Positions 2,416-7,883 of a stretch of 10,023 bases of DNA are shown here, in pieces. The notes beneath the pieces are model-generated. The model searched no databases, was not told the DNA's origin, and saw only the letters and a list, made by a program, of their open reading frames with translations. The stretch comes from Clostridiales bacterium (GTDB lineage Bacteria > Bacillota > Clostridia > Oscillospirales > Oscillospiraceae): the NCBI GenBank assembly GCA_029098065.1, contig JAQXNP010000194.1, positions 1 to 10,023 of the forward strand, read 5' to 3'. Each line of letters begins with the position of its first letter. Within the stretch, counting starts at the first letter, position 1. Position numbers and translations under genes: made by a program.

Positions 2416-2943
2416 TCAGATGGCGGAAAGCCGTCGCTCCGGAATCATGGTGCGGAAATATCTCACACGGGGCAGAACATAGAGCAGGAGCATCCCCAGC
2501 ACATAGCAGGCCCCCAGTTCCCCCAGTCCCACGGTCAGGCCGTTGAACACCCAGGCGGCGGGGAGGGCGGCGGTAAAGCCTCCCGCCTCGGCCCAGCCGA
2601 TGGTGAAGCCCACCAGCACCGCGTTGCAGATCACCGGAGGCAGAGGGGCCATCCACCTGTTTTTTACCCGGCTGGTCCAGAGGGCGGCAATGAGTGTGGC
2701 CGCCGAGCCCACCACGATATCCAGCGGGCCGTACGGGGAGAGCAGATTGGTGATGAGACATCCCACAAATAGTCCCGGCACTGTGGCCGGGAACAGGAAG
2801 GGCAGTACGGTGAGAGCCTCGGCAAAGCGGAACTGGATGGGCCCGAAGGTGAGCCCGAAGATGTTGCCGAAATAGCTCATCACGGCGTAGAGGGCGGCCA
2901 CCATGGCCGCCAGGGTCAGATCCCGGGTGGAACATTTGCGCAT
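2416..2943 (-). CDS. queT: QueT-type ECF transporter substrate-binding (S) component, queuosine precursor uptake
   Basis: This 175-residue integral membrane protein is the substrate-specific subunit of an energy-coupling-factor transporter. The family imports queuosine precursors (preQ1/preQ0) for tRNA modification, working with shared EcfA/A'/T subunits that are not in this window. The hallmark block GPIQFRFAEALTVLPFL lies at 34-50, followed by VPGLFVGCLITNLLS at 55-69 and GPLDIVVGSAATLIAALW at 72-89. About five to six hydrophobic segments span residues 8-158. The ATG at 2943 has GGAGG ten bases upstream, and that site can be masked by an upstream strand (see the leader entry). It is the first gene of a probable queT-galU operon. 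The substrate is assigned from the family; the leader would agree if it proves to be a preQ1 riboswitch. Confidence 0.88.
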   Translation of the reverse strand: MRKCSTRDLTLAAMVAALYAVMSYFGNIFGLTFGPIQFRFAEALTVLPFLFPATVPGLFVGCLITNLLSPYGPLDIVVGSAATLIAALWTSRVKNRWMAPLPPVICNAVLVGFTIGWAEAGGFTAALPAAWVFNGLTVGLGELGACYVLGMLLLYVLPRVRYFRTMIPERRLSAI

Positions 2944-2951
2944 AAGAACAA

Positions 2952-3077
2952 GACCTCCATTTTTTGTTTAGAATATGTGCGCCCCATACAGGGCCGGAGG
3001 TCCCTTTCCCCGGGGGCATGGCGCAGCGCCCCCGGACGGCATTCTCTCCGGCCGTTGGACTGGGTGGGGAACCAGTC
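2952..3077 (-). promoter_or_regulatory. Structured queT leader, candidate translational riboswitch (possibly preQ1 class)
   Basis: The 5' leader folds by eye into three helices: P1 GACTGG/CCAGTC (3077-3072 with 3063-3058, loop TTCCCCAC), P2 GGCCGGAG/CTCCGGCC (3053-3046 with 2999-2992) and P3 CCGGGGGC/GCCCCCGG (3035-3028 with 3017-3010). The P1 loop TTCCCC can also pair with GGGGAA at 3011-3006, which would make a pseudoknot. GACCTCC (3002-2996) overlaps the 3' strand of P2 and is exactly complementary to the ribosome-binding site GGAGGTC (2958-2952). Either P2 forms or the ribosome-binding site is masked. PreQ1 riboswitches are known upstream of queT, including in this bacterial family. Membership of a named class is not established here. 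Confidence 0.65.
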
Positions 3078-3083
3078 GAGGGC

Positions 3084-3092
3084 ATTATACCA
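3084..3092 (-). promoter_or_regulatory. Extended -10 promoter of queT-galU
   Basis: On the minus strand TGGTATAAT carries a perfect -10 (TATAAT, 3089-3084) with the TG extension. The -35 at 17-base spacing, TTCCTT (3112-3107), is poor and overlaps the spoIIQ terminator. Transcription would start near 3077, at the first base of leader helix P1. Confidence 0.75.
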
Positions 3093-3103
3093 CAGACCGC
3101 TTC

Positions 3104-3146
3104 AAAAAGGAAGAGGGGCCGGAGGCTTTCATCCTCCGGCTCCTCT
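3104..3146 (-). terminator. Terminator of spoIIQ
   Basis: The minus strand reads AGAGG-A-GCCGGAGG, loop ATGAAAG, CCTCCGGC-C-CCTCT (3146-3112), then TCC and five Ts (3108-3104). It lies 17 bases after the spoIIQ stop codon. This is a strong intrinsic terminator with a single mismatch in the stem. Confidence 0.85.
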
Positions 3147-3162
3147 CAAAAGGGCGTCTGAT

Positions 3163-3888
3163 TCACCGCTGGGGCAGGTACTCCAGGGGATCCACGCTCA
3201 CTCCGTCCCTGGTCATGGACAGGTGGAGGTGGGACGCCTCCGCGCTCTCGGCGATGGCGGTGGCCCCCACCGAGCCGATGATATCCCCGGTACGCACCGT
3301 GTCTCCGATCTCCACCGCCGGCACCTCCTCCAGATTGGAGCAGGTGCTCATCACGCCGTCGGCGTGGAGGATGACCACGGTGGAGCCCATCAGGTCATCC
3401 TGATAGATGTCGCTCACGGTCCCCCCTGCGGGAGCCATCACCTGGGTGCCCGCGGGGGCGGCGATGTCGATGCCGTCGTGGGCCCGCCAGTCCCCCATGG
3501 TCTCGTCATAGGCCAGGGTCTCCACCGCATAGCCCCGCAGCACCTCGCCCTTCACCGGCCAGGTAAAGACAGAGGCGGTCGCCGTCCCCATCTCCCCTCC
3601 CGTGGTCTGAGGGGCCTGAGTGGCCCGGGGCGTGGGCTGGGCCGTGGGGGCCGGAGTCTGAACCGGCCCGGGTGCCGCTGTGGCGGGCGGTTCCGCTGTG
3701 GGACGGGCCGTGGGAACGGCTGACACCGTCACTTTGGCCGGTCCGGCCACAGTCTGATCCGCTTCACCGGTATTGGAAAAAAGATAATAGCCCGAGACTC
3801 CAAGCGCCGCGACGCACAGGAGGAGGACTATGTAGAAGCCCTTCCCCGCCATGAAGTCTACGACGCGGTCTTTTATCGGTCGTTTCAT
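3163..3888 (-). CDS. spoIIQ: SpoIIQ-like forespore membrane protein, M23/LytM peptidase domain
   Basis: This 241-residue protein is probably SpoIIQ, the forespore-membrane partner of SpoIIIAH in the engulfment zipper and feeding channel of sporulating cells. A short basic N-terminus (MKRPIKDR) precedes one transmembrane helix at about 18-37. A Pro/Thr/Ala-rich linker (about 58-97) follows, then an M23 (LytM) domain at about 107-238. Zinc ligands are visible: H137 and D141 in HDGIDI, and H220/H222 in HLHL. The usual catalytic His of the Y-x-H-L motif is replaced: the matching segment is CSNL with N185. Loss or alteration of catalytic residues is known in SpoIIQ. The sigma-F-like promoter immediately upstream supports the name over a generic M23 peptidase. 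GGAGG lies 12 bases before the ATG. It is transcribed alone. Confidence 0.78.
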   Translation of the reverse strand: MKRPIKDRVVDFMAGKGFYIVLLLCVAALGVSGYYLFSNTGEADQTVAGPAKVTVSAVPTARPTAEPPATAAPGPVQTPAPTAQPTPRATQAPQTTGGEMGTATASVFTWPVKGEVLRGYAVETLAYDETMGDWRAHDGIDIAAPAGTQVMAPAGGTVSDIYQDDLMGSTVVILHADGVMSTCSNLEEVPAVEIGDTVRTGDIIGSVGATAIAESAEASHLHLSMTRDGVSVDPLEYLPQR

Positions 3889-4185: not shown

Positions 4186-5877
4186 ATGGCAGAACAGACC
4201 GCCGGGACCTCCGTCCAGGAGAAGCCCAAGTTCCAGGCACCAAAGAAGAAAAAAAAGTGGGTCAAGCGGCTCGTCATCATCGTGGTCCTTGTGGCTGTGC
4301 TGGCCTTGATCCTGAGCCAGTGCATGAATCAGGGCAGGCAGGGACTGGCGGGCGGATACATCCCCGCTGCCGCCTCCATCCAGGATATGACTGTCACCGT
4401 CAGCGGTCCGGGCACGATTCAGCCCAACGACTCCTATAAGGCCACCACTCTGGTCAAGGGGGAGATTCTTTCCGCTCCGTTCGAAGAGGGGGACGCCGTC
4501 CACAAGGACGATGTGCTCTTCACCATTGATGCCAGCGACGTGGAAAGCTCCATCAAGCAGGCCCAGACCAGCGTGGAACAGGCCAAGTTGTCCGTTCAAT
4601 CGGCCCAGCTCAACTATGACAGCCTTCTGCGCACCCGCCGGGACAATGCCGAGGATCGCCAGGTGAAGGCCAACGCCGCCGGCGTGATCAACAAGCTCTA
4701 TGTGGACCCCGGAGACAATGTGAGCATTGGTACCCCGATTGCTGAGATCCTGGATCGGGACAACATGAAGCTCACCGTCCCCTTCCACTCCTCTGACGCC
4801 GCCTCCCTCTTTGCGGGACAGACGGTCACCGTCACTGTCAGCGGTACCGCGGAGACCCTCTCCGGCACCATTTCCGAGATCGCCGCCACCGACTCGGTGG
4901 GAGCCGGCGGCACCCTGACCCGCAATATCACCGTAGTGGTGCGCAACCCCGGCGCCCTCTCCGAGTCCTCCTCCGGCACCGTCCTGGCGGGCGGCGTCTC
5001 CTCCGCCGCCTCCGGCACCTTTACATACAACGTCAGCAAACAGCTGGTAGCCAAGTACTCCGGCGAACTGCAGACTCTCTCCATCAAAGAGGGAGACCGG
5101 GTGACGGAGGGCCAGGTGGTGGGCGAATTCAAGGAGACCGACATGCAGGACCAGATCGACGCCGCCGCCATCTCTCTGGAAAACGCCAAGCTCACTCTGG
5201 AGAATGCCCAGGACACCCTGGCCCGGGCCAGGGACAATCTGGACGACTACACCATCACCTCTCCGATCGACGGCACGGTCATTGAGAAAAACTATAAAGC
5301 GGGGGACAATATCGACCCCTCCAGCGTCTCCTCCGGAGCCGCGGCCTATATGGCGGTGATCTATGATATGTCCCGTCTCACCTTCGACCTCAATGTGGAT
5401 GAACTGGATGTGGTCAAGCTGAAGGTTGGGCAGAAAGTGCTCTTCACCGCAGACGCGCTGGACGGGCAGTCCTTCACCGGCATCGTGGAGAAGATCAACA
5501 TCAACGGCACCACCGTCAACGGGCGGACCACCTATCCCGTCACTGTGTCGGTGGACGGAGACGGACTCACCCTCGCCGGCTCCGGGCTTTATCCCGGAAT
5601 GAATGTCTCCGCCAACATCATCGTGGAAGAGGTGGGCTCCGTCCTGACCATCCCGGTGGACGCCCTCTCCCGGGACGGCACCGTCCTGGTGGCCGGCGAG
5701 GGCGCCCTGAACGACAAGGGCGAACTGGTCGATCCCTCCAAGCTGGAAAGCCGGGAGATCACCGTGGGCCACAGTGACTCCGACTATATCGAGGTCCTCT
5801 CCGGGCTGGAGGAGGGCGAGACCGTCTACATCCAGAACAACGCCTCCAGTGTCATGTCCATGATGATGGGAGGCTGA
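4186..5877 (+). CDS. MacA/HlyD-like membrane fusion (adaptor) protein with internally duplicated core
   Basis: This 563-residue membrane-anchored adaptor probably works with the ABC transporter encoded just downstream. After a Lys-rich cytoplasmic start there is one transmembrane helix (about 28-44); the rest is extracellular. The first unit has a lipoyl half-motif (about 89-114, KGEILSAPFEEGDAVHKDDV), a helical hairpin (about 116-155), the second lipoyl half (about 160-188, AGVINKLYVDPGDNVSIGTP) and a beta-barrel to about 255. The same order repeats: YSGELQTLSIKEGDRVTEGQ (291-310), helices about 318-353, SPIDGTVIEKNYKAGDNIDP (359-378), and a barrel to about 482, followed by a C-terminal membrane-proximal domain. 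MacA-type adaptors normally carry one such unit in about 370-400 residues. AAGGAG lies seven bases before the ATG. Cys46 is not in a lipobox. Substrate unknown. Confidence 0.88.
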   Translation: MAEQTAGTSVQEKPKFQAPKKKKKWVKRLVIIVVLVAVLALILSQCMNQGRQGLAGGYIPAAASIQDMTVTVSGPGTIQPNDSYKATTLVKGEILSAPFEEGDAVHKDDVLFTIDASDVESSIKQAQTSVEQAKLSVQSAQLNYDSLLRTRRDNAEDRQVKANAAGVINKLYVDPGDNVSIGTPIAEILDRDNMKLTVPFHSSDAASLFAGQTVTVTVSGTAETLSGTISEIAATDSVGAGGTLTRNITVVVRNPGALSESSSGTVLAGGVSSAASGTFTYNVSKQLVAKYSGELQTLSIKEGDRVTEGQVVGEFKETDMQDQIDAAAISLENAKLTLENAQDTLARARDNLDDYTITSPIDGTVIEKNYKAGDNIDPSSVSSGAAAYMAVIYDMSRLTFDLNVDELDVVKLKVGQKVLFTADALDGQSFTGIVEKININGTTVNGRTTYPVTVSVDGDGLTLAGSGLYPGMNVSANIIVEEVGSVLTIPVDALSRDGTVLVAGEGALNDKGELVDPSKLESREITVGHSDSDYIEVLSGLEEGETVYIQNNASSVMSMMMGG

Positions 5878-5880
5878 ACC

Positions 5881-6666
5881 TTGGAACATCTCATCGAGCT
5901 CAGAGACGTCTACAAGATCTACCAGATGGGCGATGAGGCAGTCCATGCCCTGGACGGCATCAGCCTCACCATTGACCGGGGGGAGTTCGTGGCCATCGTG
6001 GGCTCCTCCGGGTCGGGCAAGTCCACCGCCATGAACATCATCGGCTGTCTGGACGTGCCCACGTCGGGCACCTATCATTTGGCGGGAGTGGATGTTTCCA
6101 CCATGGATGATGACCAGCAGGCGGAAATCCGAAACAAAATGCTGGGCTTCATTTTCCAGCAGTACAATCTGATTCCGAAGCTCAATGTCCAGGAAAACGT
6201 GGAGCTGCCGCTTCTCTACGCGGGCGTGGGCGCGGAGGAGCGCCACCAGCGGGCCATCCACGCCCTGGAGCGGGTGGGGCTGGCCGACAAGCAGAAAAAC
6301 CTGCCTTCCCAGCTTTCCGGCGGGCAGCAGCAGCGGGTATCCATCGCCCGGGCTCTGGCCGGAAGCCCGTCGGTGATCCTAGCCGATGAACCGACCGGCG
6401 CTCTGGATTCCCGCACCGGCCGGGAGGTCCTCGCCTTCCTTCAGAAACTCAACGCCGAGGGAGATACGGTAGTCCTCATCACCCACGACAATTCCATCGC
6501 CGTGAGGGCCAGGCGCATTGTCCGTCTCCAGGACGGGCGGATCATCTACGACGGCGACGCCCACGACCCCCGGGCCGTGGTACAGCCGGTAGAGTTTGCC
6601 GGAGACGCCTCCTCAGAAGATGACGGCTTCGCCGCTCTTATTGGAGAGGGGGCGGCTGATTTATGA
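5881..6666 (+). CDS. MacB-type ABC transporter ATP-binding protein
   Basis: This 261-residue cytoplasmic ATPase belongs to the LolD/MacB/SalX-type ABC group and should power the adjacent FtsX-like permease. Walker [10 protein letters not shown] is at 41-49, the Q-loop FQQYNLIP at 92-99, the signature LSGGQQQR at 145-152, Walker B VILADEP at 165-171, the D-loop GALDS at 173-177, and the switch His at 202. All catalytic residues are present. The start is a TTG at 5881: GGGAGG lies seven bases upstream, overlapping the end of the adaptor gene, and the protein then begins [13 protein letters not shown] as family members do. The gap after the adaptor stop is only three bases, and the stop codon overlaps the permease start by four bases (ATGA). 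About 35 extra acidic C-terminal residues follow the core domain. Confidence 0.95.
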
Positions 6667-7883
6667 ACTTCAGCCAGTCATTCCGCCTCGCCATCAAATC
6701 CCTGCTTACCAGCAAAATGCGGGCCCTCCTCACCATGCTGGGCATCATCATCGGCGTGGCCGCCGTCATCATCATCACCAGCCTGGGCAACGGGATGCAG
6801 AACTACATGAACCGTAAGTTTGAGCAGATGGGCTCCAATCTGGTTCAGGCCCAGGTAATGAATGACGGCTCCTCCCGCAGCGTAGACGCGGATGATATGT
6901 ATCAGCTGGTGGATAAATACCCCCAGTATCTCTCCGGCGTGACCCCCTATCTCTCGGTCCAGGCCGTTGTGCGGCAGGGCACGGATGAGTTCAGCCACAC
7001 CTCTGTCTATGGCGTCAGCGAAACCTTTTACAACGCGGAAAAGGGCGCCACCATGACGGGTTCCGATCTGGCCGCCGGCCGGTTCCTCTCCTATGTCGAC
7101 GTGGAGCGGGTCCAGAGCGTTTGTGTCGTAGGGGCCTATCTGGAACAGGAGGCCTTCGGCGGGGATGCCCTGGGCAAGGTCCTGACCATTTCAGGCTCTC
7201 CCTTTACCGTGGTAGGCGTTCTGGACACCTTGGCAGACTTGACCGAGGGCAGCTCAGACGACACCATCTATGTCCCTTATACCTGCGCCGAACGGCTGGG
7301 CGCGGGCGGCCAGTTCTCCATCTATCTGTTTACCAGCACCAGCCGGGATACCGCCTCTGCCGCCAAGGGACTGGTGGAGAACCGGCTGTTCAAGACCTTT
7401 CAGGATACCGACTACTATTTCGTCATGACCTCCGCCGAAATGATGGACGCCATGGACTCCATGGTCAATCTGCTGATGGCCATCCTCACCCTCATCGCCG
7501 CCATCTCTCTGCTGGTGGGCGGCATCGGCATCATGAACATCATGCTGGTATCGGTCACAGAACGAACCCGCGAGATCGGCGTGCGCAAATCCCTGGGGGC
7601 CAAGCAGAAGGATATCCGCAGTCAGTTCATTATTGAGGCGGGCACCACCTCAGCCATCGGCGGGACACTGGGCATCATCCTGGGCATCATTATGGCCAAT
7701 GTCATCACCAACGTGATCGCTTTCGTCCTCGGCACCGGCAACGATGGTTTCGTTGCCGTCCCTACCATCGGCGGCATTGCCGTGGCCTTCGGCGTATCGG
7801 TGGCCATCGGCATCCTCTTCGGCTACCTGCCCGCCAACAAGGCAGCCAGACTGAATCCCATCGACGCGCTGCGGTACGACTGA
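6663..7883 (+). CDS. MacB/FtsX-type ABC transporter permease
   Basis: This 406-residue membrane protein is the permease partner of the preceding ATPase. It shows the MacB layout: TM1 at about 21-41, a large extracellular MacB_PCD-type domain (about 42-265), then three helices at about 268-296, 325-357 and 367-389. The hallmark stretch GGIGIMNIMLVSVTERTREI lies at 286-305, followed by GVRKSLGA, and the C-terminal PANKAARLNPIDALRYD at 390-406. Unlike enterobacterial MacB, the ATPase is a separate protein, as is normal in Firmicutes. Family members export peptides, antibiotics or lipoproteins, or act as mechanotransmitters; the sequence does not say which applies here. The ATG overlaps the upstream stop codon, indicating translational coupling. 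Confidence 0.94.
   Translation: MNFSQSFRLAIKSLLTSKMRALLTMLGIIIGVAAVIIITSLGNGMQNYMNRKFEQMGSNLVQAQVMNDGSSRSVDADDMYQLVDKYPQYLSGVTPYLSVQAVVRQGTDEFSHTSVYGVSETFYNAEKGATMTGSDLAAGRFLSYVDVERVQSVCVVGAYLEQEAFGGDALGKVLTISGSPFTVVGVLDTLADLTEGSSDDTIYVPYTCAERLGAGGQFSIYLFTSTSRDTASAAKGLVENRLFKTFQDTDYYFVMTSAEMMDAMDSMVNLLMAILTLIAAISLLVGGIGIMNIMLVSVTERTREIGVRKSLGAKQKDIRSQFIIEAGTTSAIGGTLGIILGIIMANVITNVIAFVLGTGNDGFVAVPTIGGIAVAFGVSVAIGILFGYLPANKAARLNPIDALRYD

What the first reader, a model, noticed from the sequence alone, without database searches (positions are those of the whole stretch)
2941..3092. queT leader with mutually exclusive helix and Shine-Dalgarno mask: a candidate riboswitch, perhaps a divergent preQ1 class
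Seen: three perfect helices, a possible loop pseudoknot (TTCCCC with GGGGAA), and a strand GACCTCC (3002-2996) that is exactly complementary to the ribosome-binding site GGAGGTC but also forms the end of helix P2 with GGCCGGAG. The promoter places the transcript start at the first base of P1, so the whole 5' leader is the folded element. Known: preQ1 riboswitches of more than one class precede queT genes and act on translation. Inference: this leader senses a queuosine precursor. A GC-rich member or a new class is possible, because I cannot match it confidently to a published consensus. galU, only 24 bases downstream of queT, would share the transcript.
Basis: partly seen in the sequence, partly recalled or inferred. 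Interest (0 to 1): 0.7.

Follow-up and report, generated by a model that had tools for sequence, protein, structure and literature searches.

The report
Insertion-bearing preQ1-I-like riboswitch before queT
The RNA leader of a queuosine-precursor transporter gene in a gut bacterium looks like a very small known metabolite sensor (a class-I preQ1 riboswitch) into which a folded domain of about 87 bases with kissing loops has been inserted; relatives show a conserved family that the RNA family database does not match.

Summary
The leader is real. The window's minus strand carries a -10 box, a 124-nt RNA (3077-2954) and queT. Rfam finds nothing relevant. Homologous leaders were found in 117 of 400 sampled genomes of the family; all 118 matches lie at queT. 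Four helices covary strongly. A kissing pair between the P2b loop (3025-3020) and P3 loop (2983-2978), in none of my models, shows compensatory changes. The 5' hairpin plus the A-rich 3' tail read as a class-I preQ1 core, closest to type III: UU after P1, short pyrimidine loop, AC before the 3' strand, A-run, loop pairing with the Shine-Dalgarno. The new part is the insert between P1 and the A-rich strand. Relatives form a series: no insert (L108, L110), one hairpin, two hairpins, window type. Nine Oscillibacter-type leaders carry a relay (tail: anti-SD: SD) that fits ligand-dependent masking. Genomes tested have QueA; apparent QueC matches were ThiI or LarE in the six checked, so preQ1 salvage is likely. 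Its UUCCCC:GGGGAA knot remains possible as a second state in the window type, where it pairs better than loop and SD. Ligand binding is inferred.

The parts
3104..3147 (-). probable intrinsic terminator of the upstream M23-peptidase gene, just before the queT promoter
   Evidence: fold of 3150-3101: 14 pairs, -26.4 kcal/mol, followed by CCTTTTT; the consensus scan did not list it
3084..3089 (-). -10 box TATAAT, 6 nt before P1
   Evidence: -10-like hexamer 6-9 nt before P1 in 119 of 124 leaders with upstream DNA; 11 of 124 at a control position; no sigma-70 site in the two-hexamer scan
3058..3077 (-). P1 hairpin (3077-3072 / 3063-3058) with loop UUCCCCAC 3071-3064; C3064 is the candidate specificity base
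   Evidence: P1 99.1% and 99.4% of cells paired, with both-side changes at 3 of 6 and 6 of 6 pairs; P1 top pair G-C in 125 of 125
2971..3057 (-). inserted domain of 87 nt between P1 and the A-rich strand
   Evidence: absent in L108 and L110, graded in size in the relatives
2992..3053 (-). P2 (3053-3046 / 2999-2992), enclosing a conserved internal loop and P2b
   Evidence: 7 of 8 pairs with both-side changes
3010..3035 (-). P2b hairpin (3035-3028 / 3017-3010)
   Evidence: 8 of 8 pairs with both-side changes
2973..2989 (-). P3 hairpin (2989-2985 / 2977-2973)
   Evidence: 4 of 5 pairs with both-side changes
3020..3025 (-). kissing strand UGCGCC in the P2b loop
   Evidence: run of 5 or more pairs with the P3 loop in 36 of 36 distinct loop pairs, compensatory types
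2978..2983 (-). kissing strand GGCGCA in the P3 loop
2960..2970 (-). A-rich strand UAAACAAAAAA (L3-like)
   Evidence: A-run of 4 to 7 before the tail in 124 of 125 leaders
2957..2959 (-). UGG, proposed pseudoknot partner of loop CCA 3067-3065
   Evidence: at the A3065-U2959 position A-U 114, G-C 2, G-U 2 of 124
2954..2958 (-). Shine-Dalgarno GGAGG of queT
2416..2943 (-). queT, queuosine-precursor transporter component
   Evidence: PF06177, 148 bits
1519..2391 (-). galU, possibly co-transcribed
   Evidence: TIGR01099, 349 bits, over its cut-off; co-transcription inferred from the 24-base gap

Best explanation
It is a translational OFF riboswitch for preQ1 built on a class-I (type III-like) H-type pseudoknot core. 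Transcription starts at P1. When preQ1 is bound between P1 and the loop:tail helix, the P1 loop (CCA, 3067-3065) holds UGG at the Shine-Dalgarno (2959-2957) while the A-rich strand lies along P1, so the ribosome cannot load and less QueT is made. Without preQ1 the tail is free; in the window type the loop may then pair with GGGGAA (3011-3006). The 87-nt insert sits where other class-I members have a short linker; its P2/P2b and P3 arms are joined by a kissing-loop pair, which would bring the ends of the insert together so that the core can form despite the long linker. Shown by comparison: the four helices, the kissing pair, linkage to queT, the core sequence signature, the promoter position. 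Inferred: preQ1 as ligand, SD masking in the cell, the role of the insert.
For: Covariation: window type 22 of 27 pairs, simpler types 20 of 20. Linkage: 118 of 118 R1 matches are at queT (109 of 109 loci tested by tblastn; the other 9 are queT loci). R1, built from nine two-hairpin leaders and no window-type leader, finds the window at exactly 2954-3077 with E 7.5e-5. Core: loop starts with U in 122, ends with C in 111 and with AC in 97 of 125. The E. coli yhhQ leader read from the genome has the same layout. Insert-free members occur in the same family. Loop:tail: CCA:UGG becomes CCG:CGG in L011 and L018, and at the other variable pair U-A (73) becomes C-G (4) of 124. Kissing: 36 of 36 against a shuffled mean of 26.5 and maximum of 31. 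Relay of tail: anti-SD: SD in the nine Oscillibacter-type leaders tested. Pathway: QueA in 15 of 15 genomes; the PF06508 (QueC) matches checked are ThiI or LarE, 6 of 6.
Against: No ligand data. In the window itself the loop:SD helix has only three contiguous Watson-Crick pairs and then a C-A mismatch (C-A in 25 of 124 leaders), and the loop pairs better with GGGGAA (6 pairs). The central C-G pairs of the knot were the anchors of my count, so they say nothing. The first pseudoknot tally showed no excess over shuffles, though its window-type loops were read wrongly. The single-sequence MFE prefers another fold. RF00522 does not match, although it also misses E. coli yhhQ. The published type III is said to be almost confined to gamma-proteobacteria and yhhQ (PMC10622847). 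A conserved internal loop in P2 is not explained.
Confidence: 0.8

Rival explanations
1. It is a divergent member of preQ1-III, the queT class of Ruminococcaceae.
For: Same gene, related bacteria, about 100 nt, several helices, SD at the 3' end (PMC11625349 section 7).
Against: RF02680 has no match in 150 sampled family genomes (strict filters, no control genome rang) nor in the window, but rings in 1 of 197 genomes of the order, in another family (68.4 bits), whose sequence is unlike ours. In preQ1-III the SD is said to pair with the P4 loop; here with the loop of the first hairpin.
Confidence: 0.03
2. The leader is a riboswitch for another queuosine precursor (preQ0 or queuine), using a class-I-like core.
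For: queT linkage alone does not fix the ligand; class I binds preQ0 too, more weakly (PMC11625349).
Against: QueA, which acts on preQ1-modified tRNA (pathway knowledge), is present in 15 of 15 genomes. QueC: 11 of 15 genomes pass Pfam's cut-off of 22 bits, best 29.5 bits, but the six matches checked by NCBIfam are ThiI (5) or LarE (1); the other 13 listed matches were not checked and QueF was not searched. PMC11625349 calls QueT a transporter of preQ1 exclusively.
Confidence: 0.1
3. One reading: P2's 3' strand GACCUCC leaves P2 and masks the SD, and the P1 loop pairs GGGGAA in the other state.
For: Both pairings are exact in the window and the MFE uses the first. Loop:GGGGAA runs of 5 or more in 29 of 37 window-type leaders, anti-SD runs of 7 or more (G-U allowed) in 18 of 37 (rows). 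GGGGAA is kept in 28 of 38.
Against: Exact anti-SD in only 13 of 38; P2 covaries without regard to it; GGGGAA is missing in 90 of 90 simpler leaders, which share the loop and the queT linkage.
Confidence: 0.1
4. A structured leader that is not ligand-responsive (mRNA stability, protein binding or temperature).
For: Covariation shows structure, not function.
Against: Linkage to queT, class-I signature, leaders that read like plain preQ1-I at queT in relatives (L053, L054, L087, L115; only weak RF00522 matches where any), and the SD relay.
Confidence: 0.05

Closest known systems
preQ1-I type III riboswitch (E. coli yhhQ; PDB 8fza as named in PMC11625349)
   Same: Short pyrimidine-rich loop, UU after P1, AC before the 3' strand, A-run, SD pairing with the loop; a linker of variable length is part of the published description (PMC10622847 section 4).
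   Different: The E. coli linker is 8 nt (GGUUAAUC, PMC10622847); here it is an 87-nt folded domain with two arms and a kissing pair. Gene is queT, bacteria are Clostridia.
preQ1-I type II (T. tengcongensis) and type I
   Same: H-type knot, A-rich strand, translation control at queT in some members (PMC11625349).
   Different: Longer loop and no such insert (loop lengths recalled). Leaders that read like plain type I occur at queT in other genomes of the same family.
preQ1-II
   Same: Hairpin loop pairs with the SD and a hairpin is embedded between P1 and the SD (largely recalled).
   Different: Much longer P1 loop and another pocket (recalled); no RF01054 match in the window or in 20 related loci.
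preQ1-III (RF02680)
   Same: queT leader, multi-helix, about 100 nt.
   Different: Different topology and sequence; no match in 150 family genomes.

Membership tests
preQ1-I (class I) | H-type knot: loop of the first hairpin pairs with the 3' tail holding the SD | tested here: inconclusive
   One variable pair A-U 114, G-C 2, G-U 2, not paired 6; the other U-A 73, U-G 12, C-G 4, not paired 35, of 124; fits, with few compensatory changes. In the window 3 pairs, then a C-A mismatch.
preQ1-I (class I) | A-rich strand before the tail | tested here: met
   A-run of 4-7 in 124 of 125
preQ1-I (class I) | C just before the P1 3' strand (specificity base), after A or U | tested here: met
   AC 97 and UC 8 of 125, AC in the window; 14 of 125 do not end in C in this alignment
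preQ1-I (class I) | match to RF00522 | tested here: not met
   not a fair criterion for type III, because the E. coli yhhQ leader (L086) and L108/L110 have no match either. In 150 family genomes none was over the cut-off, 4 weak
preQ1-I (class I) | binds preQ1 | not testable with these tools
   needs in-line probing or ITC
preQ1-I type III | UU after P1, AC before the 3' strand, short pyrimidine-rich loop | tested here: met
   TT first in 103, AC last in 97 of 125; loop 7-10 nt; 79% pyrimidine; consensus taken from PMC11625349 and PMC10622847, the original paper is not held
preQ1-I type III | short linker without structure | tested here: not met
   87-nt folded insert here; insert-free in L108 and L110. 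The papers call the linker variable in length, so I treat this as a variant, not as exclusion
preQ1-I type III | gamma-proteobacteria, yhhQ | tested here: not met
   queT; close relatives are titled Pseudoflavonifractor, Flavonifractor, Oscillibacter, Oscillospiraceae; a distribution, not a structure
preQ1-III | match to RF02680 | tested here: not met
   0 of 150 family genomes, 1 of 197 in the order
preQ1-II | match to RF01054 | tested here: not met
   window and 20 related loci

The most novel reading that the evidence does not exclude
The insert is not just a spacer: the conserved P2 internal loop (GCCGYC on one side, GGGGAA-GGGAC on the other) with the kissing pair forms a second sensing or docking module. 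It competes with the Shine-Dalgarno for the P1 loop and so controls whether the class-I core can close, giving a two-input or cooperative preQ1 switch.
Probability: 0.12. Interest if true: 0.8.

Novelty: new variant of a known kind. Interest (0 to 1): 0.58.

Why it matters
[quoted passage not shown] This family shows one in graded forms in living relatives, from no insert to a kissing-loop domain, and it shows queT leaders of gut Clostridia that Rfam does not match. It offers a natural series for asking how an inserted domain tunes a minimal aptamer, and a relay variant that moves the Shine-Dalgarno away from the aptamer.

Tried and rejected
Rfam at gathering and permissive thresholds: nothing relevant for the window; one weak PreQ1 match (L053) among 20 related loci. 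Single-sequence folding: uninformative. preQ1-III searched in the family and the order as a rival: rejected. MAFFT alignments of mixed insert types misplaced L014 and the window's tail; replaced by model-fitted alignments. A first pseudoknot tally read empty loops for the window type and gave no signal over shuffles (104 against 101.4); one search uses the right columns but misreads the tails of L207, L222 and L224. The two-hexamer promoter scan found nothing. A tRNA-like look of the inserts in L192, L201 and L225 was not confirmed. Plasmid search: no match. PDB search with QueT: no match. Kissing control in full: runs of 6 or more 31 of 36 against mean 21.1, maximum 27; Watson-Crick only, 5 or more 32 against mean 18.0, maximum 24; Watson-Crick only, 6 or more 14 against mean 7.8, maximum 14, so that one measure was reached by a shuffle; 244 of 380 cross-pairings of the 20 best-run types also reach 5, because many share GCGC. 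Rows dropped before counts: L055:1306 and L018:1677 (second, chance matches); L138:1481; L202, L220 and L016 (no complete P1); L164. still contains two chance rows, one.

Full report
Observation. On the minus strand the window reads: M23-peptidase gene, a strong hairpin with a T-run (3147-3104), TATAAT (3089-3084), the leader, queT (PF06177), galU. Folding of the single sequence is not remarkable (z -1.46), so I turned to relatives.

Relatives. queT loci (81 loci held; the upstream stretches found by tblastn are printed) showed a recurring pattern: a 5' hairpin GACNGG-UUUCCACAC-CCNGUC, one or more hairpins, then UCUAAA-AnAAAAUGGAGG. A covariance model from nine two-hairpin leaders and no window-type leader (R1) found 118 matches in 117 of 400 sampled genomes of the family, 33 of 106 genera, and placed the window leader at exactly 2954-3077 (E 7.5e-5 for one genome). 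All 118 are at queT: 109 of 109 fetched loci carry queT, with the leader printed directly before it, and the other nine adjoin queT genes listed. QueT itself is in 321 of 400, so many queT genes have other leaders or escape R1: the 30 queT loci include insert-bearing leaders, leaders that read like plain preQ1-I (L087, L088, L100, L115, L116), insert-free ones (L108, L110) and some with no obvious element. RF00522 itself gives no match over its cut-off in 150 family genomes and 4 weak ones. In the order, R1 matches 13 of 295 genomes, twelve of the window's family and one of another.

Structure. With model-fitted alignments, window-type leaders (A6, 40 rows, two of them chance matches) have 98.4% of cells paired and both-side changes at 22 of 27 pairs; shuffles give 81.5% and 13.3 on average, slid partners at most 45% and 10. 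Two-hairpin and simpler leaders (A5, 91 rows, one a chance match) give 96.9% and 20 of 20; shuffles 77.7% and 12.5, slid partners at most 40.7% and 13. The alignments are fitted to the structure, which favours it; the gap over slid versions is large.

Kissing loops. The P2b loop UGCGCC (3025-3020) can pair with the P3 loop GGCGCA (2983-2978). This pairing was in no model. All 36 distinct loop pairs have a run of five or more pairs; shuffled loop partners reach 26.5 on average and 31 at most in 500 trials (relatedness is not controlled, and one of the four measures, Watson-Crick runs of six, was reached by a shuffle). The compensatory types are telling: UGUGCC:GGCACA (L212, L213), UGUACC:GGUACA (L209, L210), UGCGUC:GACGCA (L218), UGCGUG:CACGCA (L016), GCGUCA:UGACGC (L198). 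Most other pairs share a GCGC core, which is why shuffles score high.

Core. P1's loop in 125 leaders starts with U in 122, with UU in 103, ends in C in 111 and in AC in 97; the top P1 pair is G-C in 125; an A-run of four to seven precedes the tail in 124. These are the marks that the reviews give for class-I preQ1 riboswitches, UU plus AC plus a short pyrimidine loop being those of type III (PMC11625349: sections 4 and 7 and passages; PMC10622847: section 4 and passages). The E. coli yhhQ leader, read from the genome, is AUUGGG-UUCCCUCAC-CCCAAU-GGUUAAUC-AAAAAGG; the window is GACUGG-UUCCCCAC-CCAGUC-[87 nt]-UAAACAAAAAAUGG. Two leaders of the same family have the core with no insert: L108 and L110. 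L223, L104 and L021 have one small hairpin; the Flavonifractor type has two; the window type has P2 extended by P2b and the kissing pair. That the series reflects the order of evolution is inference; I built no tree.

Loop:SD pseudoknot. At one variable pair A-U (114), G-C (2) and G-U (2) of 124 occur and 6 do not pair; at the other U-A 73, U-G 12, C-G 4, and 35 do not pair, mostly C-A 25 and G-A 8 (CC and GG were the anchors of the count, three tails are misread). So covariation is present but modest, and in the window the helix is CCA:UGG followed by a mismatch. Extra support comes from nine Oscillibacter-type leaders picked by eye (L044 and L149-L153, L162, L166, L167, the last eight being all R1-matched genomes of one genus): there the tail GGAGG is not the SD of the start codon; it can pair with a downstream CCUCC, which can pair with the true SD (9 of 9; in L167 the second pairing is CCUCC:GGAGG only). 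If preQ1 makes the P1 loop hold the tail, CCUCC is freed to mask the SD; the outcome is the same repression.

Result against this reading. In the window type, counted from the rows, the P1 loop has a run of five or more pairs (G-U allowed) with the GGGGAA strand in 29 of 37 leaders and with the SD tail in 16 of 37; in the window 6 against 4. GGGGAA is kept in 28 of 38 window-type leaders and occurs in 0 of 90 simpler ones, which have the same kind of loop. I therefore take loop:SD as the shared, older function and loop:GGGGAA as a possible second state added in the window type.

Transcript start. A -10-like hexamer lies 6-9 nt (mostly 6-7) before P1 in 119 of 124 leaders against 11 of 124 at a control position. 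The RNA therefore probably begins at P1.

Ligand. 15 of 15 genomes tested have QueA (in G000 split over two contig ends). PF06508 (QueC) gives 19 weak matches in 11 of 15 genomes, over Pfam's cut-off of 22 bits in those 11, best 29.5 bits. I checked six of the 19, including the window's own genome: five are ThiI and one LarE, all over NCBIfam's cut-offs. So de novo synthesis is not seen, with 13 matches unchecked and QueF not searched. A gut-microbiome survey treats QueA, QueG/QueH and TGT without earlier enzymes as preQ1 salvage (PMC6593275, passages). The ligand is thus most likely preQ1, by inference.

Exact ACCUCC occurs in 13 of 38 window-type leaders, a run of seven or more with G-U in 18 of 37, so masking of the SD by P2 is at best a lineage feature. 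The P2 internal loop is conserved (GCCG[CU]C in 36 of 38) with an unknown role.

Novelty. No Rfam 15 model matches these leaders in the window and in the loci scanned. Literature searches for preQ1 with queT/preQ1-III, Oscillospiraceae, Flavonifractor, kissing loop, insertion/variant and type III, and for candidate structured RNAs, listed no description that I recognised; of the papers listed I read only passages or sections of PMC11625349, PMC10622847, PMC13273304 (preQ1 in its reference list only) and PMC6593275. The defining paper on types I-III (McCown 2014) is not held, so I cannot exclude that some of these leaders were in its alignment. I rate it a new variant of a known kind.

Noticed in passing
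L044, L149-L153, L162, L166, L167, downstream of the tail: Relay expression platform: tail GGAGG, then CCUCC, then a second GGAGG that is the SD of queT, with mutually exclusive pairings in the nine tested.
   Followed up: partly
window 3045-3036 and 3009-3000: Strongly conserved P2 internal loop (GCCGYC / GGGGAA-GGGAC) in window-type leaders, no known role.
   Followed up: partly
L006, L007, L011, L017, L018, L055, L056: A further hairpin is inserted just before the A-rich strand in some close relatives (for example ACUGU-GGAGCC...GGCUC-UGAAUC), a fourth arm.
   Followed up: no
L192, L201, L225: Hairpins with arms AAGGTGAC / GTCACCTT inside the insert, a long one in L225; ARAGORN finds no tRNA.
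   Followed up: partly
L031: The AAAAAATGGAG tail appears twice before queT, with a complementary CTCCAT between the copies.
   Followed up: no
L108, L110: Insert-free type III-like preQ1-I leaders at queT in Clostridia, also not matched by RF00522.
   Followed up: yes
L093, L096, L102: queT leaders with GGGGTGTCTG-TAACCCCCGTTATCAAAACAGAAAGGA look like preQ1-I type II (reading from memory of the type II layout).
   Followed up: no
G001 (same genus): Two queT copies, one with a window-type leader and one with a two-hairpin leader.
   Followed up: no
window 3163-3888 (-) and 4186-7883 (+): M23 peptidase with a SpoIIQ-like match below cut-off; a divergent run of ORFs that read like a MacA/MacB-type export system (from the ORF list, not searched).
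   Followed up: no
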